Virus record (IMG/VR): IMGVR_UViG_3300043395_003024
Span: 81,205-145,204 of that record
DNA: 64,000 bases
DNA from: a virus
Strand: one strand, 5' to 3'
Shown here: positions 46,296 through 62,260 of the stretch, one piece after another
Layout of the letters: each line of letters starts with the position of its first letter
Position numbering within the stretch: position 1 is the stretch's first letter
The notes under the pieces: generated by a model
Seen by the model: the letters and a program-made list of their open reading frames with translations, nothing else
The model's database searches: none
What the model was told of the DNA's origin: nothing
Translations under genes and position numbers: made by a program

Positions 46296-46414
46296 AATGT
46301 TCCTTCCGGATGGTGCAACGCTAATAATTATACTTTATTTATTATTTCTCAATAAATAGAAAGACCAGAACGTTTGTTTTTTCGCAAGCATCTGTACATA
46401 GAATGTCGTCACAG

Positions 46415-46487: not shown

Positions 46488-46491
46488 CTAA

Positions 46492-46563: not shown

Positions 46564-46591
46564 CAAAGCAGTTGATATCATTGCGCCACAT

Positions 46592-46671: not shown

Positions 46672-46686
46672 CGGAAAGGAATAATT

Positions 46687-47001
46687 ATGACTGATGACAT
46701 TGTGACCCGACTACGGGAGCATTACGCCGACCCTGCCGACTTTACATTTGCGGATTTGAGTGATGCCGCTGATGAGATTGAACGCCTACGCCAGCAAGGG
46801 GCAGTCATGATAAGTCACCTTAAAGAAATGTTTCCTTTCTTTATGAATGACGTCAAACACGGAGTATCCATAGGACCGGCACCTGACGGTCACGTAGATG
46901 ATTCATGCCCAGACTGTCAGTGGTACAAGAGTTCTGTAAATACCGCCGAGCGGGTTATGAATGGCGAGTTTGACTACATTCCGAAACAGGAGAACAGTTG
47001 A
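46687..47001 (+). CDS. Unknown 104-aa phage protein
   Basis: ATG 46687 follows AAAGGA by 7 nt, whereas the frame extends back into tRNA-Leu. The product starts MTDDIVTRLREHYADPADFT and contains SDAADEIERLRQQG, a helix common in small phage proteins, and a Cys pair SCPDCQWY. Function unknown. The next gene overlaps its end. Confidence 0.65.
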   Translation: MTDDIVTRLREHYADPADFTFADLSDAADEIERLRQQGAVMISHLKEMFPFFMNDVKHGVSIGPAPDGHVDDSCPDCQWYKSSVNTAERVMNGEFDYIPKQENS

Positions 47002-47218
47002 CATCCCTGGAGCGAAGGGATATTATTCGCTGGTGGACGAAGAATACACAATTGAAAACCTTCATGATGATATGGAGTTTCTCCGTAAAGCTGGACTAAT
47101 TGAAGTTATCGGCGTTAACGAAGACGGTCAATGGCTTTGGGCGGCAACCGACAAAAGTAAAACGATGTCTAGAGAAGAGCTGCTCAAAATAATGGAAGAA
47201 GAAGACGAAATTGACTGA
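46961..47218 (+). CDS. Small unknown protein (up to 85 aa)
   Basis: The longest frame starts at ATG 46961 inside the previous gene; a later GTG at 47033 is an alternative. The conserved-looking part is DEEYTIENLHDDMEFLRKAG, then LIEVIGVNEDGQWLWAATD and an acidic helix. The middle resembles a winged-helix-like turn but is too short to assign. Confidence 0.5.
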   Translation: MASLTTFRNRRTVDIPGAKGYYSLVDEEYTIENLHDDMEFLRKAGLIEVIGVNEDGQWLWAATDKSKTMSREELLKIMEEEDEID

Positions 47219-47378
47219 TAAGCCAATTTATGCATATTCAGTTAATCAATCGACACCAGATAAATGCACTCTGCTTTGTTCTACGCAAGAGGTAGATGGG
47301 TGGGAAGAGATAGGAACAGTTGATAGGCGATTTGCCCAACTAATCGTCACTGCACTAAACTATTCATCCATTCAATAG
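47211..47378 (+). CDS. Small unknown protein (55 aa), TTG start
   Basis: TTG at 47211 overlaps the preceding stop and follows GGAAGAAGAAG. The product runs TDKPIYAYSVNQSTPDKCTL, LCSTQEVDGWEEIGTVDRRF, AQLIVTALNYSSIQ. No family. The frame fills the gap exactly up to tRNA-Pro. Confidence 0.45.
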   Translation: MTDKPIYAYSVNQSTPDKCTLLCSTQEVDGWEEIGTVDRRFAQLIVTALNYSSIQ

Positions 47379-47452
<74 letters not shown>

Positions 47453-47456
47453 CGAA

Positions 47457-47543
47457 GCTGGTACCCATCCACGAGAGGTGAAAAAGTCCTCAGGGTGACG
47501 ACCCATCGCGGGGAAGGCTAAGAGGCGGGCCGCACTGCCAGCA
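47457..47543 (+). ncRNA. tRNA-sized structured RNA candidate
   Basis: GCTGGTA (47457-47463) pairs with TGCCAGC (47536-47542). Inside are three hairpins: GAGG/CCTC (47475-47478 with 47488-47491), GGGT-GACG-ACCC (47493-47504) and GCGG/CCGC (47508-47511 with 47530-47533). It begins 5 nt after tRNA-Pro and ends just before the ribosome-binding site of the gene at 47559. There is no T loop or anticodon loop, so it is not a standard tRNA. It could be a leader RNA or a tRNA-like decoy. Confidence 0.4.
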
Positions 47544-47558
47544 TTTCAGGGGAGAAAA

Positions 47559-47807
47559 ATGGAAAGCATTACGCACACTCTTGTCGGTGGGCAAATACTT
47601 ATAGGTGTACATAGCAAGTCAAAGTGCACTGGAGAGTATTGCGTAATACATAACATGAGCGACCACCACATGAAGGAGTGGCCACAAAACTGGCGACCGG
47701 ATAGACAAATGATGGAAAGAATTTGTCCACACGGAGTTGGGCATCCAGACCCAGATGAGATATCAAATGATAGAGTGCATGGGTGCGACGGATGCTGCTC
47801 ACATTGA
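47559..47807 (+). CDS. Conserved Cys/His-rich small phage protein (82 aa)
   Basis: GGGGAGA lies just before the ATG. The protein carries KCTGEYCVIHNMSDHHMKEW, then WRPDRQMMERICPHGVGHPD and HGCDGCC. I recall the CPHGVGHPDPD...HGCDGCC set from many small phage proteins. Dense Cys and His indicate at least one zinc site. Function unknown. The structured RNA candidate lies in its leader. Confidence 0.78.
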   Translation: MESITHTLVGGQILIGVHSKSKCTGEYCVIHNMSDHHMKEWPQNWRPDRQMMERICPHGVGHPDPDEISNDRVHGCDGCCSH

Positions 47808-48091
47808 GAACGTTTTTTTCCAAGATAGTCAACGCCGTTAGGAGTATGTCCCGGCGCTCCTACTGGAATCGCGCCAACTCCGTCGAGGCTTGGGGTTTTG
47901 CCACAAAGATTGCAATTATTTTTCCGGGGCTGCTTTTCGGACAGCAATTCTGGTGGCTCTACATTTTTGCAATATTTTCCAGCATTGCCCTCATATGGTC
48001 GTCAACAGTAAAGACACTGCCAACAATTATCATCTTTAATGTCTTATGGGTGATTCTTGCTTCTGCTGCGATAATAAAACATTTTATTTAA
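47783..48091 (+). CDS. Small membrane protein (up to 102 aa)
   Basis: The frame starts inside the previous gene; ATG at 47792 or 47846 are alternative starts. After a basic N-terminus (RSMSRRSYWNRANS) come three hydrophobic helices: KIAIIFPGLLFGQQFWWLYI, FAIFSSIALIW and TIIIFNVLWVILASAAIIKH. No family recognised. Confidence 0.6.
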   Translation: MRRMLLTLRTFFSKIVNAVRSMSRRSYWNRANSVEAWGFATKIAIIFPGLLFGQQFWWLYIFAIFSSIALIWSSTVKTLPTIIIFNVLWVILASAAIIKHFI

Positions 48092-48097
48092 ACATCC

Positions 48098-48170
48098 GCG
48101 CCTTTAGCTCAGTCGGTAGAGCAGCGGACTTTTAATCCGTGGGTCCTGGGTTCGAGCCCCAGAGGGCGCA
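48098..48170 (+). tRNA. tRNA-Lys (anticodon TTT)
   Basis: Acceptor GCGCCTT/AGGGCGC, D stem GCTC/GAGC, anticodon arm GCGGA-CTTTTAA-TCCGT and T arm CTGGG/CCCAG. Confidence 0.95.
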
Positions 48171-48219
48171 CTGTGCTGCTAGTTTTGGAATTAGCAAATA
48201 GACAAAGCAGGAGTGGATT

Positions 48220-48927
48220 TTGGGGAACCTGATTGAAGTAATGCCGGAAACTGGCGGTTTTGTCAGGCTTGACGCTCATATGGCCGACGATATGTCTGTA
48301 GTGAATGCAGCACGTGTATCTTTCGCTCAGCATTCGTCGGAGCTGCACGATGAGCTTTCCGGCAAAGATAAGGGGCTTGTCGGTTTCCTGATGAGGGAGC
48401 GGCACGGAACGCCGTTTGAGCACAACGCATTTAGATTCCACATCAAGTGCCCGCTCTTTGTCGCCCGCGAGTGGTTCCGTCATAGAATCGGCTCGTTCAA
48501 TGAATTTTCTGCACGGTACTCGGAGGTGCCCGACGAGTTTCACGTTCCCAAAGAGGAGCACATACGTACCCAGATTGGCAAGCCGGGAGCATACACATTC
48601 GAAATTCTTGACAAACGTGATGCGCGCGTATCGATGGCGATGACAGCAATTAATTCAAATAACATTGCGTCATACAGGCTTTATCGCGACATGATTGAGT
48701 CAGGTATTGCTAAAGAAGTTGCACGCATGGTTCTCCCTGTTTCCATGTTTACGCAGTTCTACTGGACAGTAAATGCTCGGGCATTGATGAATTTCCTATC
48801 TCTCCGTACAGACATAAATGCACAACTAGAAATCCGCGAATATGCCGCTGCTGTTGAGGAATTGTTCAAAAATACAATGCCGGTTACGTATCAAGCATGG
48901 ATAGACAACGGGAAGGTTGCACCATGA
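48220..48927 (+). CDS. thyX: FAD-dependent thymidylate synthase ThyX, TTG start
   Basis: The TTG at 48220 is chosen because GCAGGAG lies 6 nt upstream; no ATG or GTG fits. The 235-aa protein has the ThyX motif RHRIGSFNEFSARYS (about 88-102), HGTPFEHNAFRFHIKCP before it and VARMVLPVSMFTQFYWTVNARALMNFL near the end. It methylates dUMP to dTMP using methylene-tetrahydrofolate and FADH2. This gene heads the rhamnose operon through an ATGA overlap with rmlA and complements the phage's class II reductase in dNTP supply. Confidence 0.95.
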   Translation: MGNLIEVMPETGGFVRLDAHMADDMSVVNAARVSFAQHSSELHDELSGKDKGLVGFLMRERHGTPFEHNAFRFHIKCPLFVAREWFRHRIGSFNEFSARYSEVPDEFHVPKEEHIRTQIGKPGAYTFEILDKRDARVSMAMTAINSNNIASYRLYRDMIESGIAKEVARMVLPVSMFTQFYWTVNARALMNFLSLRTDINAQLEIREYAAAVEELFKNTMPVTYQAWIDNGKVAP

Positions 48928-49994
48928 GTATCAAGGGTTTGATACTTTCTGGAGGCAACGGTACGCGGCTAAGGCCTATTACCTATACCGGAGCAAAACA
49001 GCTTGTGCCGATTGCAAACAAGCCAATTTTGTTTTACGGCATCGAATCAATGGTTGACGCCGGCATTGTAAATATCGGCATTGTGGTTGGCTCTACCGCA
49101 GATGAAATAAAGACGGCGGTTGGAGACGGCTCAAAGTTCGGAGCACAAGTTACATACATTGAGCAAGCAACACCGCTTGGCCTTGCTCACTGTGTTTCCA
49201 TCTCACGCAATTTTCTTGGCGATGATGATTTCATCATGTACCTTGGCGACAACATGCTGCAGCAGAGCATTCATGAATTTCACGAAATGTTTGCTCACAC
49301 AACAAGTAAGCCATCGGCTTCAATTCTCGTAAAAGAAGTACCTAATCCGGAAAGCTTTGGCGTAGTCGAGCTTGAAAACGGAAAACCAATACGGCTTGTA
49401 GAAAAACCCGATTCTCCAAATTCAAACATGGCAATGGTAGGTGTCTACTTCTTCACGAAAGACATCCATGAAGCAATTCAGAACATCAAAGCATCTCGCA
49501 GGGGAGAGCTTGAGATAACCGACGCAATACAGTGGCTGATTGACGCCGGCAAGAGCGTTACATGCCACACACTCGAAGGATGGTGGCTTGATACGGGTAA
49601 AAAAGACCCGCTGCTTGAATGCAACCGCCTCGTCCTTGACAAGATTGAGCGAAATATTTATGAGAAGTCGCTCAACGAGTTCACTGCGGATGGGCGTGTC
49701 CAGATTGGAAATTCGCAAATCTATAACTCGCGCATTATTGGTCCTGTCGCCATAGGGGATTGGTGCGTCATACGGGATGCATTTATAGGCCCATATACGT
49801 CAATAGGAAATAACTGCATAGTTGAAAATACCGAGGTACAAAACTCAGTACTTTTAGGGAATAATGTTGTTCGTGACGTACCGCGTATTAGCGACTCGCT
49901 TATCGGCAGTGGCGCAAGGATAAGTCGTTCATCTGGAAAGCCGGCAGCACTAAAACTGATGATAAGCGACCAGAGTATTGTGGAGATTGAGTAA
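48924..49994 (+). CDS. rmlA: Glucose-1-phosphate thymidylyltransferase
   Basis: The ATG 48924 overlaps the thyX stop; the longer frame from 48897 is unlikely. The 356-aa protein has the nucleotidyltransferase signature LILSGGNGTRLRPITYTGAK, then KQLVPIANKPILFYGIE, YLGDNMLQ and LVEKPDSPNSNMAMVGVYFF. A C-terminal left-handed beta-helix region (GPVAIGDWCVIRDAFIGPYT, SIGNNCIVENTEVQNSVLLG) makes it the long type of RmlA/RfbA-like enzyme. It forms dTDP-glucose from dTTP and glucose-1-phosphate, the first step to dTDP-L-rhamnose. The stop overlaps the rmlC start (TAATG). Confidence 0.93.
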   Translation: MSIKGLILSGGNGTRLRPITYTGAKQLVPIANKPILFYGIESMVDAGIVNIGIVVGSTADEIKTAVGDGSKFGAQVTYIEQATPLGLAHCVSISRNFLGDDDFIMYLGDNMLQQSIHEFHEMFAHTTSKPSASILVKEVPNPESFGVVELENGKPIRLVEKPDSPNSNMAMVGVYFFTKDIHEAIQNIKASRRGELEITDAIQWLIDAGKSVTCHTLEGWWLDTGKKDPLLECNRLVLDKIERNIYEKSLNEFTADGRVQIGNSQIYNSRIIGPVAIGDWCVIRDAFIGPYTSIGNNCIVENTEVQNSVLLGNNVVRDVPRISDSLIGSGARISRSSGKPAALKLMISDQSIVEIE

Positions 49995-50560
49995 TGCCCA
50001 TAATTGAAGAATGCAATGAAATAAAAGACGTTTTGATAGTTAACCCAGATGTACATGGTGACGAAAGGGGCAACTTCATCGAGACATACCGTCGGTCGTG
50101 GTTCCCGCTAGGGCGTGAGATGATACAGGGCAACAGGGGAGACCGAGCTCTAGGTTCTCTCGTAGGGCTTCACTACCATCTACATCAGGCTGATTATTGG
50201 TATGTTCCTTTTGGTATATGCAGAATTGTTTTGCACGACATTCGCGCAGGTTCGCCTACACAGGGAAATACGTATGTAACCGATGTGGGTGATACTAGTT
50301 ATGATGGCTTCGACCACAGAGGAATATTTATCCCGCCAGGCGTAGCGCATGGATTCTTGGCAGTAACAAACATGACGATTACTTACATGGTAGACAGCTA
50401 CTACAACAAAAATGATGAACTTGGCGTCCTCTGGTCGGACCCGGCAATAAAAGCCGACTGGGGAGATGGCGAAAAAATCGTTTCTTCTCGCGATATGGCA
50501 AATCCATTAATTGCCGACATCCCGCAGGCACTGATACCGACATATGGATTACGAACATGA
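49994..50560 (+). CDS. rmlC: dTDP-4-dehydrorhamnose 3,5-epimerase
   Basis: A 188-aa cupin of usual RmlC length: VNPDVHGDERGNFIETYRRS, GLHYHLHQADYWYVPFG (catalytic His in GLHYH) and FIPPGVAHGFLAVTNMTITY. It epimerises C3 and C5 of the 4-keto sugar. One difference from typical enzymes is GLHYHLHQ in place of GLHxQ. Overlap of the stop with the rmlB start is ATGA. Confidence 0.92.
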   Translation: MPIIEECNEIKDVLIVNPDVHGDERGNFIETYRRSWFPLGREMIQGNRGDRALGSLVGLHYHLHQADYWYVPFGICRIVLHDIRAGSPTQGNTYVTDVGDTSYDGFDHRGIFIPPGVAHGFLAVTNMTITYMVDSYYNKNDELGVLWSDPAIKADWGDGEKIVSSRDMANPLIADIPQALIPTYGLRT

Positions 50561-51522
50561 ATAAAGTGCAGTTTGTAACTGGCGGAGCTGGATTTATAGG
50601 CTCTAATTATGTTCGTTATGTATTAGCAAATACTGACGACAGTATTGTTATATACGACTCCCTCACCTATGCCGGCAGAATGCAAACAATGCATGATTTT
50701 CTCGATTCAACTCGAGTTAAATTTATCAAGGGCGATATCTGTGATAAAGATTCATTGCTGTCTGCAATGAAGGGCTCTGATTACGTTGTTCACTTTGCCG
50801 CAGAAAGTCATGTAGACCGCTCAATTGCCCTTTCAGACACATTTGTACGTACCAACTGCCTCGGAACCGATGCAGTAATGGACGTAGCCCGACATGTGGA
50901 CATAGAGCGCATAGTCCACATAGGCACGGATGAGGTATATGGCTCTGTAGAAGTCGGCTCATCGCTAGAGTCAGACCCACTAGAGCCGCGTTCACCATAT
51001 TCGGCGTCAAAGGCTGGTTCTGACCTGCTGGCGCTGGCGCATTACACAACGCATGGGCTCCCAGTTTCTGTTACGAGATGCACCAACAATTTCGGACCAT
51101 ACCAGTTCCCTGAAAAAGCCATTCCGCTGTTTATCACCAATATCTTTCAGGGTAGGAAGATACCCCTGTATGGAGATGGCCTGAATCAGCGCGACTGGAT
51201 ACACGTGGAAGACCACTGCTCTGGCGTATACAAGGTCTTAACTAACGGAAAAGACGGAGAAATTTACAATATCGGCGCCGGGAATGAAACCCCCAATGTC
51301 GAGATTGTCCATATGATTCTCGAGTACATGGAGCTTGAATTCGATGAACATGTCGAATATGTTCCTGACAGAAAAGGCCATGACCGTAGATACTCGGTAA
51401 GTGTGGACAAAATAGCAGCGCTTAATTGGAGAAGAAAACACAACCTTGTCGACGACATCTGGTATGTCATATCTTGGTATAGGTCTAATCGCTGGTGGTG
51501 GGAGCCACTAAAGAATGCCTAA
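50557..51522 (+). CDS. rmlB: dTDP-glucose 4,6-dehydratase
   Basis: A 321-aa short-chain dehydrogenase: NAD-binding VTGGAGFIGSNYVRYVL, FAAESHVDRSI, catalytic HIGTDEVYGSVE with the YSASKAGSD Tyr-x3-Lys, then TRCTNNFGPYQFPEKAIPLF and GDGLNQRDWIHVEDH. These are diagnostic of RmlB. It makes dTDP-4-keto-6-deoxyglucose. The order A-C-B-D with overlapping stops points to one transcript. Confidence 0.94.
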   Translation: MNKVQFVTGGAGFIGSNYVRYVLANTDDSIVIYDSLTYAGRMQTMHDFLDSTRVKFIKGDICDKDSLLSAMKGSDYVVHFAAESHVDRSIALSDTFVRTNCLGTDAVMDVARHVDIERIVHIGTDEVYGSVEVGSSLESDPLEPRSPYSASKAGSDLLALAHYTTHGLPVSVTRCTNNFGPYQFPEKAIPLFITNIFQGRKIPLYGDGLNQRDWIHVEDHCSGVYKVLTNGKDGEIYNIGAGNETPNVEIVHMILEYMELEFDEHVEYVPDRKGHDRRYSVSVDKIAALNWRRKHNLVDDIWYVISWYRSNRWWWEPLKNA

Positions 51523-52360
51523 AATTCTCGTCACTGGCGCGACTGGCCAGCTTGGCTCGGAAATTGTCCAACGAGCAGACGAGCATGCATACGAAGTTGT
51601 TGCGCTAAGTCACAAACTTCTCGATATCTGTGATGAAGCAGCGGTTACAGAGGCAATCCACGTCCACGAGCCAACACATATTATTCACTGTGCTGCCTGG
51701 ACGGATGTAGATGCTTGCGAGCGCAATCAAATCAAAGCTGAAAGAATCAACGCTGATGGAACAAGGTACATAGTCCTGGCGGCTGGCGATGTTGGTGCCC
51801 ATGTCACGTACATATCCACGGACTACATCTTTGACGGTAAGAAAGAATCTCCATACGAAGAGTACGACTCACCATCACCGTTGTCGGCGTACGGTCTCAC
51901 GAAACTCCAGGGAGAAACGTGCATGCGCCCGACAGATGCCATTATTCGCGTCTCTTCCGTATGCGGAAAGACCGGAAAAAACATTCTCAAAACAATTTTA
52001 AAAATAGCCAAAGAATCGTCGGAGCTTTCATTCGTTGATGACCAGTTCAGCAACCCGACTTTTGCAGATGACGCATCGTTGAAAATACTTGAGCTCGCAA
52101 TCAATAACAGCGGCGGCATTTGGCACGTCACGAACCAGGGCTCCACGTCATGGTACGACTTTGCCAAGAATGTTATAGATTTCGCCGGCATCGACGTACC
52201 TATAAATCCTATAAAAAGCGCAACAATCCGCAACCAGCGACCCGCAATACGCCCACTCAACTCAATTCTCCGCAATAAAAGAATGGAGGACAGTGGATTA
52301 GAACTCCTAGACCACCATCTCGTACCTATGGAGCGCCTAGTACGTCAATTACTAGCTTGA
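51515..52360 (+). CDS. rmlD: dTDP-4-dehydrorhamnose reductase
   Basis: A 281-aa protein with ILVTGATGQLGSEIVQ (NADPH binding), HCAAWTDVDACE, YISTDYIFDGKK, SPLSAYGLTKLQGE (Tyr-x3-Lys) and GIWHVTNQGSTSWYDFAKNV. It reduces the 4-keto group to give dTDP-L-rhamnose, completing the pathway. It ends in a 9-bp convergent overlap with the lysis-type gene. No glycosyltransferase was seen in the window. Confidence 0.94.
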   Translation: MPKILVTGATGQLGSEIVQRADEHAYEVVALSHKLLDICDEAAVTEAIHVHEPTHIIHCAAWTDVDACERNQIKAERINADGTRYIVLAAGDVGAHVTYISTDYIFDGKKESPYEEYDSPSPLSAYGLTKLQGETCMRPTDAIIRVSSVCGKTGKNILKTILKIAKESSELSFVDDQFSNPTFADDASLKILELAINNSGGIWHVTNQGSTSWYDFAKNVIDFAGIDVPINPIKSATIRNQRPAIRPLNSILRNKRMEDSGLELLDHHLVPMERLVRQLLA

Positions 52361-53905: not shown

Positions 53906-54136
53906 TTATTTGCTGTCAGAAGGGGGAGATTGCGGTACACGCTTCATCAGGAAACACCCCTGATGCCAGTACTCCACATGGTCAGGCTTACCTAAGGGGC
54001 GAAACTCAATCATATGGCGAGCATTAGACCATTCACCACAATGTGGACACTGCTTCTCGTCAAAGAATTTGTCCAGATAGGCCGAGAGTGACCAAAACAC
54101 CCCCAAAGACACCACCAAAAGAATCAATAATTCCAT
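53906..54136 (-). CDS. Small membrane-anchored zinc-motif protein (76 aa)
   Basis: The product starts MELLILLVVSLGVFWSLSAY, one N-terminal transmembrane helix, then DKFFDEKQCPHCGEWSNARH and YWHQGCF, a Cys/His set suggesting a zinc site on the cytoplasmic side. GGGGG precedes the start. No family recognised. Confidence 0.65.
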   Translation of the reverse strand: MELLILLVVSLGVFWSLSAYLDKFFDEKQCPHCGEWSNARHMIEFRPLGKPDHVEYWHQGCFLMKRVPQSPPSDSK

Positions 54137-54157
54137 ATTGCCCCCTACATGTCCCTA

Positions 54158-54415
54158 TTACTCGCCAGACAAGACCTTGGCGTTCATCTCGTTCCACAGG
54201 TCCTCAACATGGACGTGGATGTCTGGATGGACGTCATCTTTGTGAAAAGGGTCATATTTGGTGGCCCGAATGGCATTAGCGATGCTCGGACGGAACTCCC
54301 ACAGGCAGTTGAAATACGTCTGCCCCAAGCGGATGGTGGGGTCGCCGGCCTTGAGCTGCCCATGCTCTTGAGCAACAAAAACCAGGAACTCGTTGTAGCT
54401 GTAAATAGTACTCAT
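54158..54415 (-). CDS. Conserved small phage protein (85 aa), leaderless
   Basis: The start at 54415 (MSTIYSYNEFLVFVAQEHGQ) is preferred over longer frames that run through the CA-repeat zone. On the minus strand TATGAT lies 6 nt before the ATG (plus 54422-54427), with TTGTGT 17 bp further upstream. The body contains LGQTYFNCLWEFRPSIANAI and DIHVHVEDLWNEMNAKVLSG, a helical pattern seen in short phage proteins of unknown function. Confidence 0.72.
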   Translation of the reverse strand: MSTIYSYNEFLVFVAQEHGQLKAGDPTIRLGQTYFNCLWEFRPSIANAIRATKYDPFHKDDVHPDIHVHVEDLWNEMNAKVLSGE

Positions 54416-54589
54416 GACGCCATCATACATACACACGCCGGCCGACACAAGCGGTTTGGATAAATTAAAATAAAAAAAGACGACCATAAAATTTTGATTT
54501 TTAGCTCCCCCCTGCTGTGGGGACGCGCTCGAAAGTTCGCGGGGCTCTCTGACCACCCCATTTCCCCACCACCACATCGGCGCATTTCT

Positions 54590-54900
54590 GACGCACGCAC
54601 ACGCATGAACACACGCACACACACGCACACACACGCACACACACGCACGCAGGCGCACGCAGGCGGGGGGCACGGCAGGTACATTCATGTTCCGGTTCGG
54701 GTACGCACACGCAATGCGAAGTGCGAAGCGAAGTGCGAAGCATCAAGCGATGAAGTGAACGCAACGCAGTGCGACACGCAACGCACACACAGTGACGCAA
54801 TGCGATACGACACGCACACGCAGTGCGACGCACACGCAGTGCGCATTGACCAACGCACACGCAGTGCGACAGTCACGCGCGCACGACGATGACACACGCA
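54590..54900. repeat. CA-rich repeat zone with 16-bp iterons
   Basis: From 54590 to 54665 the sequence is a run of CACACACG-type units. Further on ACGCACACGCAGTGCG occurs perfectly at 54812-54827, 54828-54843 (in tandem) and 54853-54868, with degenerate copies before. No gene is visible; frames through it give Cys/Val or Thr/His repeats. It marks the change from about 46% GC to a GC-richer segment and could be a replication origin, recombination site or packaging-related region. Confidence 0.65.
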
Positions 54901-54927
54901 AGCACCACGCGAGGTACACTTGTCGTC

Positions 54928-55098
54928 ATGCGAAAGCGCAAGCACATAGCCCAACCGAAATGGTCAGACGACGAGCGTCAATCGTTCGCCGATGGCGTGC
55001 GCATGCGAGCAAGCACCGTGCCCGACGCACGCAAGGCACAGAGCAAAGAGGCGTGTCGTCATGCGTACCGTCATGCGAGTGCGAGCGAGGGCGAGTAG
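54928..55098 (+). CDS. Small basic protein (56 aa), leaderless
   Basis: TACACT (54915-54920) lies 7 nt before ATG 54928, with no Shine-Dalgarno. The product MRKRKHIAQPKWSDDERQSF continues ADGVRMRASTVPDARKAQSK. 'PKWSDDERQSFADG' recalls Myb/SANT-like helices. It is rich in Arg, Lys and His. A regulator is possible; certainty is low. Confidence 0.5.
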   Translation: MRKRKHIAQPKWSDDERQSFADGVRMRASTVPDARKAQSKEACRHAYRHASASEGE

Positions 55099-55637
55099 CA
55101 CGCACGCACCGACGCATCACGCCGAGAGGCGCGCGAGGTATGACGAGGGGCGACGAGGTGTAGGTAAGGCGAAGCGAATCGCTAGGTGCCACGGGTAGTG
55201 TGGCACATCACTAGACACGCCCGATAGAGAGCAATACCATGACCCCCATGACTAGGCATGTGATGGCAATGGTCAGCGCAACAGGTTCGAGCCCAATGCC
55301 ATCGACCCATCTCGACCACCTCACCCATTGACCCTCGCACCATTGGCACCATGATGACCACCCTCTCATCAGAGGTGAGCGAGAGCGTGAAGGTTTGCGA
55401 GGTGCCACGGGTGTCATACGGGTAACCCTACCCTCACGCATACACCTAGCCACCATGTATCACATGTCTAGCCCTATGTGTGTGGCTACCCATTGACATG
55501 CTGTCGCCATGACCGAGTGCCTACCCCATTGAGTATCCCGCCTATGACCCACTCCCACCCCTACCCCCTATTGACACATTGACCCAATGTCATCACACCC
55601 ACTTGACATGTACCACCCCTCATGTAGTGTCGTACCC
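55099..55637 (+). promoter_or_regulatory. 539-bp non-coding region ending in a canonical promoter
   Basis: It holds GGTGTAGGTAAG (55157-55168), two CACGGGT words and the hairpin CCTCT-CATC-AGAGG. Several TTGACA-like words occur. The best promoter is TTGACA (55603-55608), 16 bp, TAGTGT (55625-55630), 7 nt before the ATG at 55638. A minus-strand frame at 55211-55456 ends in a hydrophobic segment, but its codon pattern is unconvincing and I leave it out. Confidence 0.6.
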
Positions 55638-55847
55638 ATGAACACATCAGACCTACTGACCTCATCCATCAACGACCTCTCATCAGAGGGGACAGTCACT
55701 CATGTCAATGCCATTGGAGATGACGTGGAGGTGTGGTTGTCCGTGCCCACTGACGAGGGGACACGACACATCATCAGACGCATCCCATGTCAGACCCCCG
55801 AGCAGGCGCAGAGTGTTGCGCGACTGTGGAAGGCTGTATGGTATTGA
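55638..55847 (+). CDS. Small unknown protein (69 aa), leaderless
   Basis: The start is fixed by the -10 box 7 nt upstream. The product begins MNTSDLLTSSINDLSSEGTV and continues with VEVWLSVPTDEGTRHIIRRI, then a helix (TPEQAQSVARLWKAVWY). No family recognised. The next start lies 3 nt after its stop. Confidence 0.6.
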   Translation: MNTSDLLTSSINDLSSEGTVTHVNAIGDDVEVWLSVPTDEGTRHIIRRIPCQTPEQAQSVARLWKAVWY

Positions 55848-55849
55848 GC

Positions 55850-56023
55850 ATGGACACATACCGAATCACCGTGTCAGTGCGTAAGCGCAATGACCTAGAA
55901 GCACCCAACAACATTGACGAAGCACTAGTCATGGTGCGTCAGCTGCTTACAAGGGGCTCCATGATTGACCTCATTGACATCGAGCCAGAGGACAAGCAGA
56001 CCAAAGAGGTGAAGTGGGGGTAG
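55850..56023 (+). CDS. Small unknown protein (57 aa)
   Basis: The product MDTYRITVSVRKRNDLEAPN continues NIDEALVMVRQLLTRGSMID and ends KQTKEVKWG. A strand-helix-strand order (RITVSVR, DEALVMVRQLL, DLIDIEPED) suggests a small alpha/beta fold. It is coupled to the previous gene. Confidence 0.55.
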   Translation: MDTYRITVSVRKRNDLEAPNNIDEALVMVRQLLTRGSMIDLIDIEPEDKQTKEVKWG

Positions 56024-56059
56024 AGGGCGCGCTCACCTAGTGAGTGATACCCTTGCCCT

Positions 56060-56425
56060 ATGTCAGGCATCTATGTACCACGACGCAAGGTACATCAAGC
56101 GATTCGTGTGTCATGTCTGACCAATGACTACCTCACTGACGAGGGCGAACTAGAACAGATGCTCGCATGTGCCATGTTCATGACGAAGGTGTTTCAGGCG
56201 TGCCGTGACGCAGGCGTGACGACGCGCAGTGCCACGGGTAGTGAGGTGAACCTAGTGTCCCTGATGATAGAGACCGAGATGGAACTAGGTATCTATCGTT
56301 CGCCTGCCGACCTTGACATGCTCAACAGGTTCCACCGCTATCAGGTGGAGTGGGAGACGACACGACGCAGGCGATACTGCTATGCCGTCATGTACCGCAT
56401 GACATCAGGTGTCATCGTTCAGTAG
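56060..56425 (+). CDS. Unknown 121-aa protein, leaderless
   Basis: TACCCT ends 6 nt before ATG 56060. The product MSGIYVPRRKVHQAIRVSCL is followed by helices (EQMLACAMFMTKVFQACRDA, LVSLMIETEMELGIYRSPAD) and a basic stretch (TTRRRRYCYAV). No family recognised. Confidence 0.6.
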   Translation: MSGIYVPRRKVHQAIRVSCLTNDYLTDEGELEQMLACAMFMTKVFQACRDAGVTTRSATGSEVNLVSLMIETEMELGIYRSPADLDMLNRFHRYQVEWETTRRRRYCYAVMYRMTSGVIVQ

Positions 56426-56485
56426 CCCAACCCACCCGAAGGCGCAGGTGCCACGGGTGCCCTACGGGTAGTGGTGTAGGTAGGT

Positions 56486-56512
56486 GGAAGTCTGTCCCCG
56501 TGATAGTACGCT
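56486..56512 (+). promoter_or_regulatory. Repeated promoter, copy 1
   Basis: GGAAGTCTGTCC, 9 nt, TACGCT; the ATG 56520 is 7 nt downstream, giving a leaderless mRNA. GGTGTAGGTAGG (56473-56484) abuts it upstream. The GGAA-to-TAC distance is 21 nt in all four copies. Confidence 0.75.
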
Positions 56513-56519
56513 CATGTCC

Positions 56520-57005
56520 ATGAGTGACACATCAGAGACAAGCACCACCCCCGAGTTCACACCGTTCTTCCGTCAGTACAAGCACGCAACATGCTCTGCC
56601 TGTCGTGGAAGTTTCGTGTGTACCCAGCAAGAGCACTACCCCGACAACGGTTGGGTGTTGCCGTTCGACACATTCGGCTACTACGGCGGATTCGATGACA
56701 ATGTTGGCGTTCTCACAGGGAGCCGTCGCAGTCGTGAGTGGATTCTCTGCCATGACTGTGTTGTGAAGTTCCTTGACACATTCCCCCTGCTCGCACAGGA
56801 CATTGGTCAGAACTGCCATCCAGCAGGACGCGATGACACATTGCCATGCTGTCGTCACGCTTGGCAAGGGACAGACATCTTTGGCAAGAACATCGACGGT
56901 GTTCACACTCGCACCGCATGGCCTGACGGACTGTGGCATGACGATGAGCCACACAACCCCTATGCTCGTCATGACGAAAGGAAGCACGATGCCACTCAAC
57001 CTTGA
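56520..57005 (+). CDS. Unknown 161-aa protein with a zinc-ribbon-like motif
   Basis: ATG 56520 is chosen because it lies 7 nt after the -10 box; ATG 56514 would precede the transcript start. The protein has CSACRGSF near 25, LCHDCVVKF near 75 and CC near 105, a likely two-part zinc site, and aromatic segments (WVLPFDTFGYYGGFDDN). No function known. Confidence 0.7.
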   Translation: MSDTSETSTTPEFTPFFRQYKHATCSACRGSFVCTQQEHYPDNGWVLPFDTFGYYGGFDDNVGVLTGSRRSREWILCHDCVVKFLDTFPLLAQDIGQNCHPAGRDDTLPCCRHAWQGTDIFGKNIDGVHTRTAWPDGLWHDDEPHNPYARHDERKHDATQP

Positions 57006-57246
57006 CCTGACCCTCGCCGACTGGCTCGTCTGCCAGTGCGGTAACGAACCCGACCTCGACGGTTTCTTCACCTGTTCACCAACAGGCACTATGGTTTCGC
57101 CAGAGGCCACGGGTAGTTGGGATGGACATTCGTACCTCTGCTTGCGGTGCGGTGCCATCTATGACATCACCACGTTCGAGCAGACAGGAGAGGCGACCAC
57201 GGAAGTGATGCGCGCGAACTACCTACGAGGCGATGCCGAGGTGTAG
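56989..57246 (+). CDS. Small zinc-ribbon-like protein (85 aa)
   Basis: AAAGGA lies about 8 nt before ATG 56989, inside the end of the previous gene. The product MPLNLDLTLADWLVCQCGNE has CQCG...FTC in its first half and LCLRCGAIYD in the second, a two-ribbon arrangement. Its stop is formed by the GGTGTAGGTAA element. Confidence 0.68.
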   Translation: MPLNLDLTLADWLVCQCGNEPDLDGFFTCSPTGTMVSPEATGSWDGHSYLCLRCGAIYDITTFEQTGEATTEVMRANYLRGDAEV

Positions 57247-57373
57247 GTAACACCTAACGCAGCCGAACATCTCTGTATCGGAACACCAACAACTGCGGGG
57301 CTCCCACCGGAACGCACACACACGCCACCTGTATGGCACGGGGTTGGATAGCAGGTAGGTGTAGGTAAGTTGC

Positions 57374-57400
57374 GGAAGTCTGTCCCGTGCGTGGTACGCT
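57374..57400 (+). promoter_or_regulatory. Repeated promoter, copy 2
   Basis: GGAAGTCTGTCC, 9 nt, TACGCT. A short leader with GAAAGGGA precedes the ATG at 57434. GGTGTAGGTAAG (57358-57369) lies immediately upstream. Confidence 0.75.
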
Positions 57401-57433
57401 TCGTGTTGCCAACATCTACGGAAAGGGATTCAC

Positions 57434-57748
57434 ATGGCAAGCATTATCAACACTCTTGACCGCGCAGACGCACGGGTCACAAACTGGTTGGATGACAAGT
57501 ATCCGACATTCATCTACCGATACGTCGTCGGTATGTTCACATTCGCACTGCTCACGGGTGTGTTCGCTATCGCTAAGGCGTACATCACGCGCAACGCGTT
57601 TGACCTGTTCTTCGGAATCCTGCTGACAGTTGGTTCGGCTATCGGCGGAACGCTCGCAACCTTGTGGGCGTGTAACGCAATCGCTTCGCTTCGTGACAAG
57701 GGGCGACGCGTTCACCCGTCATACCCCTACAAAGGTGTAGGTAAGTGA
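57434..57748 (+). CDS. Two-helix membrane protein (104 aa)
   Basis: The Shine-Dalgarno GAAAGGG precedes the start. After a soluble N-terminus (MASIINTLDRADARVTNWLD) come two hydrophobic helices, VVGMFTFALLTGVFAIAKAY and LFFGILLTVGSAIGGTLATL. The tail is basic. Location in the host membrane is likely; function unknown. Its C-terminus overlaps a GGTGTAGGTAAG element. Confidence 0.72.
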   Translation: MASIINTLDRADARVTNWLDDKYPTFIYRYVVGMFTFALLTGVFAIAKAYITRNAFDLFFGILLTVGSAIGGTLATLWACNAIASLRDKGRRVHPSYPYKGVGK

Positions 57749-57749
57749 C

Positions 57750-58454
57750 ATGGACACGCTGACACGCACACGCGAGGTCATCGCGGAAATGCTCACGGAG
57801 AACACGGGTCGTCACATACTGGACAGTGGCGGTGCGTATGGGCGACACTGGGAACGCAACGCAGGGCGCACACTCGCAGAGTGGAACGCGCAACCGCGCG
57901 CATGGGCTGACCGTTGGGGCGTGACGCTCTCGGTCTATCACTATCTCGCAGAACGCTTGGAGTACGCGCCGACACTTGACGCAGAGTTCCGCGCTTTCTG
58001 TTCGGAGAATCCCGATGACGGTTGGCTCTCGCTCGCGGAGTCGTTCGCGTTCGAGAAGGATGCCAGCGCGCACACATGGAACACCTACAACGGTGAGGAC
58101 TCGCTCGCGCAGACGCTACAAGGCGTGACATTCTCCCATGACGGGGAAGTGTTCACCCTCTTACAGATTCACGGGGGGTGCGATGTTCGCGGTGGCTACA
58201 CATCACCGCGCGCGTTCCGTGTCACGGTAGACATGGCAGAGTCGTTCCCGTACGACAATGCGAACTACTCGCTCGTGTGTCTGAACGATGAAGAACACTC
58301 GGTGGAGTGCGTCTACGGAGAGTTGCTCTCACTCGTTCACGGGTTCTCCCTCGCAGATGATGAGAAACCGCTATTCGGAGAGAAGGACTCTGACGCCCCA
58401 CTCTGTTGCGTGTGTCGCACCGCGATGACGGTAGACGCGCCGTACGCATACTGA
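57750..58454 (+). CDS. Conserved phage/plasmid protein of unknown function (234 aa)
   Basis: It starts one base after the preceding stop. The N-terminus TENTGRHILDSGGAYGRHWE then RNAGRTLAEW is a block I recall from many actinophage and plasmid proteins. The middle has TLLQIHGGCDVRGGYTSPRA and the end PLCCVCRT. No catalytic site can be named. Codons are strongly GC-rich compared with the left part of the window. Confidence 0.78.
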   Translation: MDTLTRTREVIAEMLTENTGRHILDSGGAYGRHWERNAGRTLAEWNAQPRAWADRWGVTLSVYHYLAERLEYAPTLDAEFRAFCSENPDDGWLSLAESFAFEKDASAHTWNTYNGEDSLAQTLQGVTFSHDGEVFTLLQIHGGCDVRGGYTSPRAFRVTVDMAESFPYDNANYSLVCLNDEEHSVECVYGELLSLVHGFSLADDEKPLFGEKDSDAPLCCVCRTAMTVDAPYAY

Positions 58455-58634
58455 CTCGGTACACGACGCGCACCGTGTCGGCACTCATCTACTTAGGTGT
58501 AGGTAAGTGTCGGCACGGTGTTTCGCGCTTACCTACACACATTCCGCGCGACACTCACCATCGGAGTTGAGGACAACCGAACGCAGTGAGGGCGTCAGGA
58601 GCGGGGCTCCTGCCATAGCGCACAACACCACTCG

Positions 58635-58661
58635 GGAAGTCTGTCCGATGTGTGGTACTGT
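58635..58661 (+). promoter_or_regulatory. Repeated promoter, copy 3
   Basis: GGAAGTCTGTCC, 9 nt, TACTGT, followed by a leader resembling that of copy 2 (CGAAAGGGGTTCACA) before the GTG at 58692. The 237-bp gap also holds GGTGTAGGTAAG (58496-58507), its reverse (58528-58538) and the hairpin CAGGAGC-GGG-GCTCCTG. Confidence 0.75.
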
Positions 58662-58691
58662 GTGGCCGTTGCCGAACGAAAGGGGTTCACA

Positions 58692-58883
58692 GTGGCATCA
58701 ACAACATTCATCATCAAGCGCGTGGCGCGTCTCACGGGTGGCGGTATCAGCCGTACCGTTCTCAATGAGACGTTCGCTTCCAAGCGCGACGCAGAGAAGT
58801 TCCTCGGCCTCGCGCTCTACTTCCCTGCCCCGAACATCGGAGAGGACACGGTGGAATACTCCATCGTCGCACAGCGCGCCTGA
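58692..58883 (+). CDS. Small unknown protein (63 aa), GTG start
   Basis: AAAGGGG lies 7 nt before the GTG. The product MASTTFIIKRVARLTGGGIS continues FASKRDAEKFLGLALYFPAP and ends VEYSIVAQRA, a small alpha/beta pattern. The longer frame from 58650 begins inside the promoter and is rejected. Confidence 0.65.
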   Translation: MASTTFIIKRVARLTGGGISRTVLNETFASKRDAEKFLGLALYFPAPNIGEDTVEYSIVAQRA

Positions 58884-58948
58884 CACCGCTTCGGACTTAC
58901 CTACACCTAGTAGCGCGCCTGCTACGGGTGTAGGTAAGGCCACGGGTG

Positions 58949-60151
58949 CTAGCGGTCTACCTTGATGACGCGAGGCCGTGCGGTCACTTCATCGCCAGCG
59001 TTGCCACCGCGACGGTGTGCGCGAATCCACTTCGCACGGTGTTGCTTCTGCGACGGATACCACTGGTTGCGCCAGTGGCCACGGACAAGGTGCGCGAGTG
59101 TCACCTTGTTACCTACACCTGTTCCATCGCTCTCATCGTCAAGCGCGCGACGCAGGGAGAGAATCGTCACGTTCCGTAGGTCACCACCGCGACCCACACG
59201 CGAGGCACGACGGCCGTGCGCGCGATGGAGAGGGGACTTACCTACATCTACATACTCTTCCATGAGACGGAACAGAGCGACGAGAAAGCGACGAACGGTG
59301 TTCTTCCTGTCAAGCGACGCGGAGAGCATCTCATCGGTCACGCGGTCTTTCTCGTAGTAGTCCTTCTCCTCGCGCAGTCCATCTTCGTCGTAGAAGAACG
59401 CGTAGATGTCCATCAGTCGCAGGTCGCGACCCATCTCGGGAATCTCCACCGTCAGGCCGTCTACGGTCGTTCCAGTCATCGTGCCGTACACGCGAACATA
59501 CACGCCCTTCTCCGCATCGGATGCGAAGAGCAACTTCTCGGCCAGCGCGTACTCGGCCGACTTGCGCCCAAACCTCTTCTCAACATCGGCCAGCGCGTCG
59601 GGCTTGATGCTGTCAATGTCTCCCCATGCGAACGCGCGAACATCCCAATGCTCTGCGCCGACGTAATCGCCGAACTCGTCGGGTGCGGTGTTGAGTCGCG
59701 TTCCCTTCACGCTTCCACCTCGCGCGACGATGAGGTCAAGCAGTGAGTCGTATTCGTGCGCCTTCATACGCGAGAGAACATCCATCGTGATGGGTGTCTC
59801 CATGACGACGAATCCGCACGGTGTGTAAATGTCCGTCGCGAACAGAACCTCGTCGGGCATCGTGGCCTCGGCCGTGTTCACCAACTCGCGCAGGTCGTCG
59901 GTCAGGAACACGGTGTCGGCACGGGTGAGTATCGCGTCGTCAAGTGTGCGCGAGACTTCGTGATACGCGTGGCTCTCCTTCATTGCGGATTCCAACGTCG
60001 CGCGCGAGAGCGTGTCGTCCACGGGTGCGCCCACGAACGCGCGGTAGTAGCCGTGGTGTAGCAGGCGGTCGGCCGTGGGGTGGCCGTTGCGGAACTCAAC
60101 CAACTTCGTGTGGAGGTCAAAGGCGAGTGAGGCAGACGAGATTTCTTCCAT
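58949..60151 (-). CDS. Conserved phage protein of unknown function (400 aa), leaderless
   Basis: On the minus strand TACATT lies 6 nt before the ATG. The start MEEISSASLAFDLHTKLVEF is helical; the middle is alpha/beta (TPCGFVVMETPITMDVLSRM). The C-terminus has VRGHWRNQWYPSQKQHRAKW then IRAHRRGG, a block I know from many actinobacterial phage and plasmid proteins, ending with a basic tail. Its function is not known; the conserved Arg/His/Trp end suggests nucleic-acid binding. Two minus-oriented GGTGTAGGTAAG-type elements lie inside the gene. Confidence 0.8.
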   Translation of the reverse strand: MEEISSASLAFDLHTKLVEFRNGHPTADRLLHHGYYRAFVGAPVDDTLSRATLESAMKESHAYHEVSRTLDDAILTRADTVFLTDDLRELVNTAEATMPDEVLFATDIYTPCGFVVMETPITMDVLSRMKAHEYDSLLDLIVARGGSVKGTRLNTAPDEFGDYVGAEHWDVRAFAWGDIDSIKPDALADVEKRFGRKSAEYALAEKLLFASDAEKGVYVRVYGTMTGTTVDGLTVEIPEMGRDLRLMDIYAFFYDEDGLREEKDYYEKDRVTDEMLSASLDRKNTVRRFLVALFRLMEEYVDVGKSPLHRAHGRRASRVGRGGDLRNVTILSLRRALDDESDGTGVGNKVTLAHLVRGHWRNQWYPSQKQHRAKWIRAHRRGGNAGDEVTARPRVIKVDR

Positions 60152-60157
60152 GCCCCG

Positions 60158-60184
60158 AATGTACCACCAGCAGGACAGACTTCC
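60158..60184 (-). promoter_or_regulatory. Repeated promoter, copy 4
   Basis: Minus strand: GGAAGTCTGTCC, 9 nt, TACATT, then 6 nt to the ATG at 60151. It is the best -35 of the set (TTGGAA). The rest of the 281-bp gap up to 60432 is GC-rich with the hairpin ACCGTGC-TTC-GCACGGT (60298-60314) and one minus-oriented GGTGTAGGTAA; no gene is seen. Confidence 0.75.
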
Positions 60185-60432
60185 AACTCCGCTACCTGCC
60201 GTTCACACCCGTGCGCGCAGGCCGTGCCTGCCCTCCCTCCGGGAGCCCCGTTTCGCTTCTTGTCGCTCCCGCCTCGCTTCGCTCGTTGGGCTGGCGCACC
60301 GTGCTTCGCACGGTTTGCCCTCTGCCTGTGTGGCGTGGGTTGCCGTGGGTGTTCGGGCGTGTGGCGTGGCGTGTGGTTGTGCGCCTGTGGTGGGTGTGGT
60401 TCCCCTCTTTCGGGGTTACCTACACCTTCCCG

Positions 60433-60993
60433 TCACCAGTCCCTGTGTTCGGTCGGGTTCTCGTTCTCCCGAATCTGTGCGTCGTACGCCAGCCAGCCTC
60501 GGGTCGTCTCGTACGCCTCCAATGCCTGCCACTCGTCCCACGAGATGCTTCCGCAGTAGGTCGTGGGCGAGAGCGAGTAGTCGCTGATGCCGTGGCGGTC
60601 GTCAGAGCCTTCCAGCCTCTCTCGGGTGAGCAGGACTCCGACGACGATGCGGTCGCCCTTCTTCGCCTCCGTCTCGGGGAGGGTCAGGGTGACTTCTGCG
60701 CCAGCACCGTGCCAGCCCCAGTCGTCGTACGGGAACTCGTCCACGAGGCAGGTGGCGCACTCGCAGGCGAGCGTGTTCGTCCACTCGCCGTTCTCGTCGC
60801 ACGGCACGGGCTTGCCCTCGTACAGGCACGGGGTGTCCAGCACCAGCGCACGGGCGGTGTTGCGGTCCCACCAGTCGGGGCGGAACCAGCCCGTGACGGA
60901 CTCGCCGTCCACGCTGTCCACCGTGAGGACGACCTCACCCTCGTACAGGACGCGCCCGTCCCTCAACTCGCACTCCGTCTCAATCCTGAGCAT
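60433..60993 (-). CDS. Unknown 186-aa protein
   Basis: The start at 60993 (MLRIETECELRDGRVLYEGE) has AAAGGGGAG upstream on the minus strand, better than a longer frame. The body is beta-rich (VVLTVDSVDGESVTGWFRPD, AEVTLTLPETEAKKGDRIVV) with Cys at LACECATCLVDEF that could bind metal. Long plus-strand frames here are shadows. No family recognised. Confidence 0.65.
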   Translation of the reverse strand: MLRIETECELRDGRVLYEGEVVLTVDSVDGESVTGWFRPDWWDRNTARALVLDTPCLYEGKPVPCDENGEWTNTLACECATCLVDEFPYDDWGWHGAGAEVTLTLPETEAKKGDRIVVGVLLTRERLEGSDDRHGISDYSLSPTTYCGSISWDEWQALEAYETTRGWLAYDAQIRENENPTEHRDW

Positions 60994-61192
60994 GGCTCCC
61001 CTTTCGTCGGGGGAGACCGTCCCCCCCGACACCGCCAGCGTACCACGGGTGGGGCAGGCTTCCCGTTGTGGCTTACCTACACCGTACCTGCCGTGCCTCC
61101 CCGTTGCGTGGGGGCGCGTGGGGGTCTTCTCCCTGCGGGAGCCCCGCTATCTCCGGCATGACCTACCTACACCTTCCCCTACGGACAGCACC

Positions 61193-61209
61193 TTTCAGAT
61201 AGATTTATC
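61193..61209. promoter_or_regulatory. Near copy of the 53756 palindrome before the DUF932-like gene
   Basis: TTTCAGATAGATTTATC differs from the 53756-53772 copy at one base. It lies 26 bp before the ATG at 61235, where a repressor would block the start of transcription. No clear promoter boxes were recognised. Confidence 0.45.
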
Positions 61210-61234
61210 TACGAGATAGAGAGACGGAGACACA

Positions 61235-62260
61235 ATGGCTCACCAACTAGAAATCAACGAAGATGGCACAGTGCGCATGGCGTATGCGGATAGAGAAATC
61301 CCGTGGCACAGACTCGGGAAACCCATGAAAGGGCTACAAACCGCAGAGGCAATGCTCAATGCGGCGCAAGCTGATTTTGATGTGGTGACGACACGAGTCG
61401 CCGTGTGTGACGACAACGGTGAACCAATCCGTCAGCCTGACGGAACACCGATTCTCGTTCCCGATTCACGGGCAACAGTACGAGTGAACGCAGACGGTTC
61501 GTTCGACGGACTCGCTACTGTCGGCACACGCTATGTCGTTCAGCAAAACAAGGAATGTCTTGACTATGCGCTCGACATCGTTGGTGCGTCAGGCGGTGAC
61601 GCAGTTGTGGACACTTGTGGAGTTCTACACAGTGGGCGTGAGTTTTTCGCATCTATTGACATGGGTGCGCTCGTTATTGACCCGTATGGAATCAACGACT
61701 CAATCGAGCGTTATCTGCTCGTTCACAACGGACATGACGGAAAGACGGCAATCACATTCGCAAACACGAGTATTCGTGCCGTGTGTAAGAACACTGTAAT
61801 CGCAGGCGTTTCATCTGCTAAGCGAGTATTCACTGCTCGTCACACACGAAACGCAGACAGAGCAATCGAGCAAGCGAATGAAGTTCTCAACATTTCGAGC
61901 GCATGGGCTCGTGAGTTCGCACGAACGGCAGAACAACTGTTGTCAATCAAAGTTCCTGCGTCATCTCCGATTCTCGACAAGACACTTGACGCAGTGTTTC
62001 CGTTAGCAAAAGACGCAACAGAGCGTCAGCAAAAGAACCGTGAAGAAGTAGTCGCGCTCGTTCGTGCTGTGTACGCAAACGACAACAATGCGAAGAACTA
62101 CGGGTACAACGGCTGGTCGCTCGTCAATGCTGTCGGCGAGTATCTCGACCACTATCGTGACGCAACACTGACAGAACGAGCACTTGCGTCTATGAGTGCG
62201 AACTCGTGGGTATCAAGAGCAAAGGTAAAGGCGCAGGACTATCTCTTGTCAGCAGTATGA
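61235..62260 (+). CDS. DUF932 (phage/plasmid-like TIGR03299) protein
   Basis: A 341-aa protein with the family's layout: DREIPWHRLGKPMKGLQTAE near 22, then VPDSRATVRVNADGSFDGLA, GREFFASIDMGALVIDPYGI, HNGHDGKTAITFANTSIRAV (conserved) and a charged helical C-terminal half (NDNNAKNYGYNGWSLVNAVG, EYLDHYRDATLTERALA). These proteins are common in phages and plasmids; no function is established to my knowledge. Codon use is less GC-rich than the preceding 7 kb, so the composition changes again here. Confidence 0.88.
   Translation: MAHQLEINEDGTVRMAYADREIPWHRLGKPMKGLQTAEAMLNAAQADFDVVTTRVAVCDDNGEPIRQPDGTPILVPDSRATVRVNADGSFDGLATVGTRYVVQQNKECLDYALDIVGASGGDAVVDTCGVLHSGREFFASIDMGALVIDPYGINDSIERYLLVHNGHDGKTAITFANTSIRAVCKNTVIAGVSSAKRVFTARHTRNADRAIEQANEVLNISSAWAREFARTAEQLLSIKVPASSPILDKTLDAVFPLAKDATERQQKNREEVVALVRAVYANDNNAKNYGYNGWSLVNAVGEYLDHYRDATLTERALASMSANSWVSRAKVKAQDYLLSAV

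What the first reader, a model, noticed from the sequence alone, without database searches (positions are those of the whole stretch)
56486..60184. Four copies of a fixed-spacing promoter GGAAGTCTGTCC-N9-TACNNT
The 12-mer is identical in all four copies (56486, 57374, 58635 and minus strand 60184) and the 21-nt distance to TAC never changes. The conserved spacer part GTCTGTCC exceeds what a sigma-70-type promoter needs, so a phage regulator or alternative sigma factor may bind there. Two copies give leaderless starts; two have near-identical Shine-Dalgarno leaders.
Basis: seen in the sequence. Interest (0 to 1): 0.72.

Follow-up and report, generated by a model that had tools for sequence, protein, structure and literature searches.

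The report
Phage-specific promoter family, one per gene
A large group of environmental viruses, probably infecting actinobacteria, places the same unusual on-switch, a standard start signal plus a 13-letter virus-specific tag, in front of most genes in one region of the genome, which suggests that an unidentified factor redirects the host's transcription machinery to those genes.

Summary
The four exact copies are where stated, each with TACNNT 21 nt downstream. A fifth, degenerate copy (61063, minus) and six more at the other end of the 145-kb contig were missed. Relatives carry 18-25 copies each, all inside one ~27-30-kb block. A profile built from them gives no hits in 3 Mb of randomised sequence and none outside the block. 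In seven contigs, 123 of 124 copies precede a gene start: 12 leaderless at exactly 6-7 nt, 111 with a Shine-Dalgarno leader. The consensus is GGAAGTCTGTMCC-N4-GTGGTAYNNT: an extended sigma-A-type -10 plus an 18-bit box at -33 to -21 where a -35 would normally lie. In 84,980 bacterial and archaeal species the pattern occurs only at chance level. Best reading: phage-specific promoters used by host RNA polymerase, with a phage-encoded factor reading the box (T4 middle-promoter logic). The factor was not identified; no phage sigma factor was found. A second 12-13-mer lies just upstream of most copies; it is uniform within a phage and swapped between phages, resembling Cluster A stoperators. New variant of a known kind; no transcript data.

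The parts
56486..56512 (+). Promoter copy 1: box GGAAGTCTGTCC, -10 TACGCT; leaderless start at ATG 56520 (gene 56520-57005)
   Evidence: orthologues in G003 and G002 have ATG 7 nt after the -10
57374..57400 (+). Promoter copy 2: box, extended -10 TGGTACGCT; SD leader, gene 57434-57748, then 57750-58454
58635..58661 (+). Promoter copy 3: box, extended -10 TGGTACTGT; SD leader, GTG start, gene 58692-58883
60158..60184 (-). Promoter copy 4: box, extended -10 TGGTACATT; leaderless ATG 6 nt on, gene 58949-60151 (400 aa)
   Evidence: homologues
61037..61063 (-).
56473..56484 (+). Second dispersed motif (m2, GGTGTAGGTAGG), directly upstream of promoter 1
57358..57369 (+). m2 (GGTGTAGGTAAG), 4 nt upstream of promoter 2
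61072..61083 (-). m2 (GGTGTAGGTAAG), 8 nt upstream of promoter 5
58896..58938 (.). Inverted pair of m2 between convergent genes, forming a long hairpin
   Evidence: -32.1 kcal/mol, z -4.7
58496..58539 (.). Inverted pair of m2 downstream of gene 57750-58454

Best explanation
These are members of a dispersed, phage-specific promoter family that gives most genes of a ~30-kb non-structural (probably early or middle) block their own start site. Shown from sequence: a fixed bipartite signal, a 13-bp box at -33 to -21 and an extended -10 (GTGGTAYNNT), followed by a leaderless ATG at 6-7 nt or an SD leader. Inferred: host RNA polymerase with its primary sigma factor reads the extended -10, while a phage-encoded or phage-modified factor reads the box in place of the usual -35 contact, as MotA does at T4 middle promoters. 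Because the box is absent from host genomes and common to the whole block, such a factor would switch on many genes at once. The neighbouring second motif (m2) is probably a separate operator or stoperator-type site that modulates or insulates these units.
For: In seven contigs, 123/124 profile hits precede an ORF start; 12 are leaderless at exactly 6-7 nt, which fixes the -10/+1 geometry, and downstream genes are unrelated to one another (0 paralogue pairs). No hits above 16 bits in 3.05 Mb of Markov sequence and none outside the block in G003, G002 and G015. Between orthologous promoters the box keeps 70-88% identity and TA..T 100%, against 35-58% for the N4 spacer and 27-36% for upstream DNA. 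Information: box 18.3 bits, N4 0.6, GTGG plus -10 13.4. No TTGACA-like -35 is found. Only 2 matches in 257 Gb of prokaryotic genomes, in unrelated taxa, about chance. No phage sigma region 2. T4 middle promoters have the same logic (PMC2988021).
Against: No transcript or binding data. The identity values are biased upward because both members of each pair were found with the same profile. No box-reading factor was identified: WhiB and the HA-HTH protein hardly change between lineages, although relative G017 uses a different box. MotA and AsiA profiles gave nothing, but their controls did not ring either. In relatives a weak TTG at -36 to -34 is enriched (50-72% per base), so sigma-A might still touch a poor -35.
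Confidence: 0.6

Rival explanations
1. Plain host-type promoters: the primary sigma factor (or a host regulator such as a host WhiB-like protein) alone reads the extended -10 and the box, which is just a strong spacer sequence selected for high early expression.
For: The -10 is a textbook extended type and TTG is enriched at -36 to -34 in relatives; the single-gene layout would suit strong early expression.
Against: The box carries 18 bits, more than a -35 needs; exact-pattern matches are absent from host genomes beyond chance; a generic sigma-70 scan finds none of the window copies.
Confidence: 0.2
2. The box is mainly an operator: a phage repressor binds it to silence all early genes (immunity or temporal shut-off), and transcription itself needs only the extended -10.
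For: Many asymmetric sites at promoters resemble Cluster A operators (PMC9283540); in G015 the m2 motif overlaps the box; an XRE/CI-type protein is encoded in the block.
Against: The box is much more constant between lineages than m2, the opposite of what immunity operators usually do; no significant homologue of a Cluster A repressor; no tyrosine or serine recombinase found; the recognition helix of the XRE protein is invariant while m2 changes.
Confidence: 0.15
3. A phage-borne or host alternative sigma factor (for example ECF-type, whose -35 begins GGAA) reads both elements.
For: The box begins GGAA; a 124-aa HA-HTH protein has a C-terminal match to Sigma70_r4 near the cut-off.
Against: No Sigma70_r2 domain in 13 records; the downstream element is TANNNT with TGN, not an ECF -10; some lineages keep TCTGTMCC without GGAA; Foldseek gives no significant match for the HA-HTH model.
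Confidence: 0.05

Closest known systems
Bacteriophage T4 middle promoters (MotA box plus sigma-70 -10; sigma appropriation)
   Same: Fixed-distance phage box in place of the -35, host -10 element often with TGn, dozens of copies (PMC2988021).
   Different: Box sequence unrelated and placed at -33 to -21 rather than centred at -30; no MotA or AsiA detected (controls silent); factor unknown.
Cluster A mycobacteriophage operators/stoperators (L5, TipsytheTRex)
   Same: The companion motif m2 is a short asymmetric element in many intergenic copies, oriented with transcription (214 vs 66), and differs between related phages (PMC9283540).
   Different: About 70-110 copies in the more complete relatives rather than 20-30; no Cluster A repressor homologue; often forms inverted pairs. 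The promoter box itself is not lineage-variable in this way.
Start-Associated Sequences (SAS/ESAS) of Cluster K and EF phages; intergenic repeats of Microbacterium clusters EC, EG, EI
   Same: Conserved repeats before many small genes in actinobacteriophages; for SAS, near-absence from host genomes is reported (PMC3203893, PMC7302621).
   Different: SAS lies at the ribosome-binding site; this box lies upstream of a -10 and precedes leaderless genes too. Direct sequence comparison with EC/EG/EI repeats was not made.
Cluster O mycobacteriophage 17-bp repeats
   Same: More than 30 dispersed copies, many intergenic (PMC4351075).
   Different: Those are palindromes without consistent orientation and not tied to a -10.

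Membership tests
Primary-sigma (sigma-A/70) extended -10 promoters | TGN-TANNNT about 6-7 nt before the transcription start | tested here: met
   TGGTAYNNT in the 94-copy profile; 12 leaderless ATGs at 6-7 nt. Actual start sites not measured.
Primary-sigma (sigma-A/70) extended -10 promoters | TTGACA-like -35 | tested here: not met
   Generic scan finds none of the window copies; only a weak TTG in relatives
T4-type middle promoters | Phage box at fixed distance replacing the -35, with a host -10 | tested here: met
   Fixed register in all profile hits; that the box functionally replaces the -35 is inferred
T4-type middle promoters | MotA-box sequence (TGCTT core) | tested here: not met
   Consensus is GGAAGTCTGTMCC
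T4-type middle promoters | MotA and AsiA genes | tested here: inconclusive
   No match, but no control genome rang
Alternative (phage or ECF) sigma promoters | Phage-encoded sigma with region 2 | tested here: not met
   0 of 13 records; positive controls rang
Cluster K/EF Start-Associated Sequences | Repeat located at the ribosome-binding site next to the start codon | tested here: not met
   Box starts 33-90 nt upstream of the start; 12 copies precede leaderless genes
Cluster A stoperators (for m2) | Many short asymmetric intergenic sites oriented with transcription | tested here: met
   214 vs 66 in co-directional gaps; mostly intergenic
Cluster A stoperators (for m2) | Cognate Cluster A-type repressor | tested here: not met
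   Saintus gp80 query: best E 0.03; a single query, so weak

The most novel reading that the evidence does not exclude
A family-wide phage transcription-takeover system in actinobacteriophages: an unknown phage factor replaces -35 recognition at about 25 single-gene promoters, coupled to a companion motif of about 70-110 copies whose specificity has been swapped genome-wide between close relatives (GGTGTAGGTAAGT versus GAGTAGATAAGT and others), implying an undescribed, rapidly re-specified DNA-binding regulator.
Probability: 0.45. Interest if true: 0.78.

Novelty: new variant of a known kind. Interest (0 to 1): 0.6.

Why it matters
Dispersed repeats before actinobacteriophage genes have been described for over a decade without a function (SAS/ESAS, Cluster O, Microbacterium clusters). 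Here the anatomy is unusually clear: box, extended -10, leaderless start, with orthologous promoters to compare. The function therefore becomes directly testable in a reporter. If a phage factor reads the box, it would be a non-T4, actinobacterial case of -35 replacement, and the swapped companion motif would give natural specificity variants with which to find its binding protein.

Tried and rejected
(1) I first concluded that relative G015 lacks the promoter, from a strict pattern; the profile showed 18 variant copies there, so that was withdrawn. (2) HA-HTH 124-aa protein as the box-specific factor: present in every lineage, including G017 with a different box, and its HTH is nearly invariant, so not supported as the specificity determinant; I had also wrongly noted it as absent from G017. 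(3) WhiB as the specificity factor: its C-terminal region is conserved in G017 too. (4) XRE/CI-like 73-aa protein as the m2 factor: recognition helix invariant. (5) Searching for genes with G000-G002 similarity higher than G000-G003 to find the m2 factor: the genomes are mosaic and many genes qualify, so not decisive. (6) An inverted repeat GTACC-GGTAC inside the promoter: not maintained (position 10 is C in 47 and A in 38 of 94). (7) Single exact hits in unrelated contigs G006, G007, G008, G010, G014: treated as chance. (8) Nearest cultured phages Cantare and GMA6, and DSL-LC01: no profile hits in the parts read. (9) Foldseek on the HA-HTH model: nothing significant.

Full report
CHECK. The 12-mer GGAAGTCTGTCC is present exactly at 56486(+), 57374(+), 58635(+) and 60184(-), each with TAC 21 nt downstream. 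Within two mismatches the window holds 14 matches against 4.3 expected, and no shuffle of 100 reaches 14. The window is positions 81205-145204 of a 145,204-bp virus contig; these four are its only exact copies and the reversed pattern has none. A fifth copy was missed at 61063(-), GGAAGCCTGCCC-N9-TACGCT.

THE FAMILY. A scan of viral contigs found several related phages with many copies. A 45-nt profile built from them finds ten copies in G000 (the window's contig; window copy 1 falls below the cut-off, so eleven in all), 24 in G003, 25 in G002, 18 in G015, and 12-19 in several other, partial contigs. In G003, G002 and G015 every hit lies inside one ~27-30-kb block and none outside; 3.05 Mb of order-3 Markov sequence gives no hits. 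By synteny, roughly 13 kb of this block is missing between the two ends of the G000 contig, so the window shows only an edge of the array.

ANATOMY. From 94 distinct copies the consensus is GGAAGTCTGTMCC-N4-GTGGTAYNNT. With the -10 placed at -12 to -7 the box lies at -33 to -21 and carries 18.3 bits; the N4 spacer carries 0.6 and the GTGG plus -10 carries 13.4. A generic sigma-70 scan finds none of the window copies. In seven contigs, 123 of 124 copies are followed on the same strand by an ORF start: 12 leaderless, always 6-7 nt after the -10, and 111 with a Shine-Dalgarno sequence 24-63 nt after it. No two downstream genes within a genome are homologous, so the copies are not the result of gene duplication. 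Between orthologous promoters the box is 70-88% identical and the -10 TA..T 100%, while the N4 is 35-58% and upstream DNA 27-36% identical; these values are biased upward because both members were found with the profile. For copy 1 the orthologues place the start at the second ATG, 56520.

PHAGE SPECIFICITY. In 257 Gb of prokaryotic genomes the pattern GGAAGYCTGWMCC-N5-TGGTAYNNT occurs twice, in a Sulfurimonas MAG and in Mucilaginibacter. My estimate of chance for about 18 specified bases is several hits, so there is no host family of this promoter.

WHO READS IT. No Sigma70_r2 domain was found in 13 records, with positive controls ringing; the phage RNA polymerase search was uninformative because its control was silent. 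The phages encode WhiB proteins and a 124-aa protein with an HA domain and an HTH whose score to Sigma70_r4 is near the cut-off. Both are nearly unchanged in their DNA-binding parts in G017, a relative whose promoters use a different box, TAGGAAACTCCAGCC-N5-GGTATAG, in about 34 copies. So neither is supported as the specificity determinant, though either could still be a conserved partner. Across lineages the orthologous promoter of one AAA-ATPase gene often keeps TCTGTMCC plus the -10 while the left part varies. T4 middle promoters are the closest working analogue (PMC2988021), but MotA and AsiA searches were uninformative.

THE COMPANION MOTIF (m2). A second 12-13-mer is even more abundant: GTGTAGGTAA[GC] 39 times in G000 and 74 in G002, against 0-1 in G003, G009, G001, G005, G012 and G015, which instead carry TAGATAA[GC] (112 in G003, 97 in G015). 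G000 is closer to G003 than to G002 for the 400-aa gene (77% vs 60%) yet shares the m2 type of G002. Other lineages have further versions. m2 is mostly intergenic, oriented with transcription 214 to 66 in co-directional gaps (P 2e-19, overstated because orthologous sites are not independent), and lies most often 4 bp upstream of the box, though the distance varies. In G015 it overlaps the box. Inverted pairs occur at gene ends; the window pair 58896-58938 folds to -32.1 kcal/mol. This resembles L5-type stoperators (PMC9283540), but a Cluster A repressor query found no significant homologue and no recombinase was found.

JUDGEMENT. That these are promoters is well supported by geometry and comparison (I would say 0.9). 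That a phage-encoded factor reads the box is the best inference (about 0.6 for the full statement) and is untested. The host is not known; an actinobacterium is inferred from the WhiB genes and from capsid relatives in Brevibacterium and Gordonia phages. The kind of thing is known; this version, with unusually clear anatomy and a companion motif of swapped specificity, was not found in the literature I could search, which holds only open-licence papers.

Noticed in passing
window 55157-61173, 14 sites; also contig L022: Second dispersed motif GGTGTAGGTAAG, in + orientation up to 58507 and mostly - from 58528 to 61173, following gene direction; replaced genome-wide by GAGTAGATAAGT in the close relative G003.
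   Followed up: partly
L022:10083-10457 (minus), contig G000: 124-aa HA-plus-HTH protein found in 29 viral loci plus G017; upstream of the gene in all 29 loci is a near-invariant palindrome CGAACA-N2-TGTTCG type, like an actinobacterial LexA box (from memory, not tested), and the gene looks leaderless.
   Followed up: partly
L022:4150-4371 (plus): 73-aa XRE/CI-type repressor-like protein inside the promoter block, found in most lineages examined, with an almost invariant recognition helix.
   Followed up: partly
L185-L186 (contig G017): A relative with a different array: TAGGAAACTCCAGCC-N5-GGTATAG, about 34 copies, mostly leaderless genes.
   Followed up: partly
L222 (Actinomycetia phage DSL-LC01): Named phage with its own 14-17-copy repeat GATTCTAAAGATGTTATA plus a repeated ACGACGAAAGGACA leader; may be an analogous promoter array.
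   Followed up: no
early blocks of G000, G002, G003, G012, G001, G009: Third repeat TGACGGTGGTGGAAG, 3-8 copies per contig, all on one strand, upstream of some promoters.
   Followed up: no
window 54001-61500: G+C rises to 55-60% against 44-51% in most of the rest of the window.
   Followed up: no
window 30533-39379: 2948-aa protein with one exonuclease (RNase_T) domain and otherwise almost no family match.
   Followed up: partly
window 57750-58454: 234-aa protein (phrog_11344) with ~35% identical homologues next to the ArdA-like gene in Cluster A mycobacteriophages such as Saintus.
   Followed up: partly
window 43639-52360: A cluster of 9 tRNA genes (43639-48171), then a ThyX-like gene and dTDP-rhamnose-type sugar genes (48220-52360; named by eye from their first residues, not searched).
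   Followed up: no
window 29523-30191: 222-aa HTH protein with a match to Sigma70_r4 just over the cut-off (no region 2), and a weak match to terminase small subunits.
   Followed up: partly
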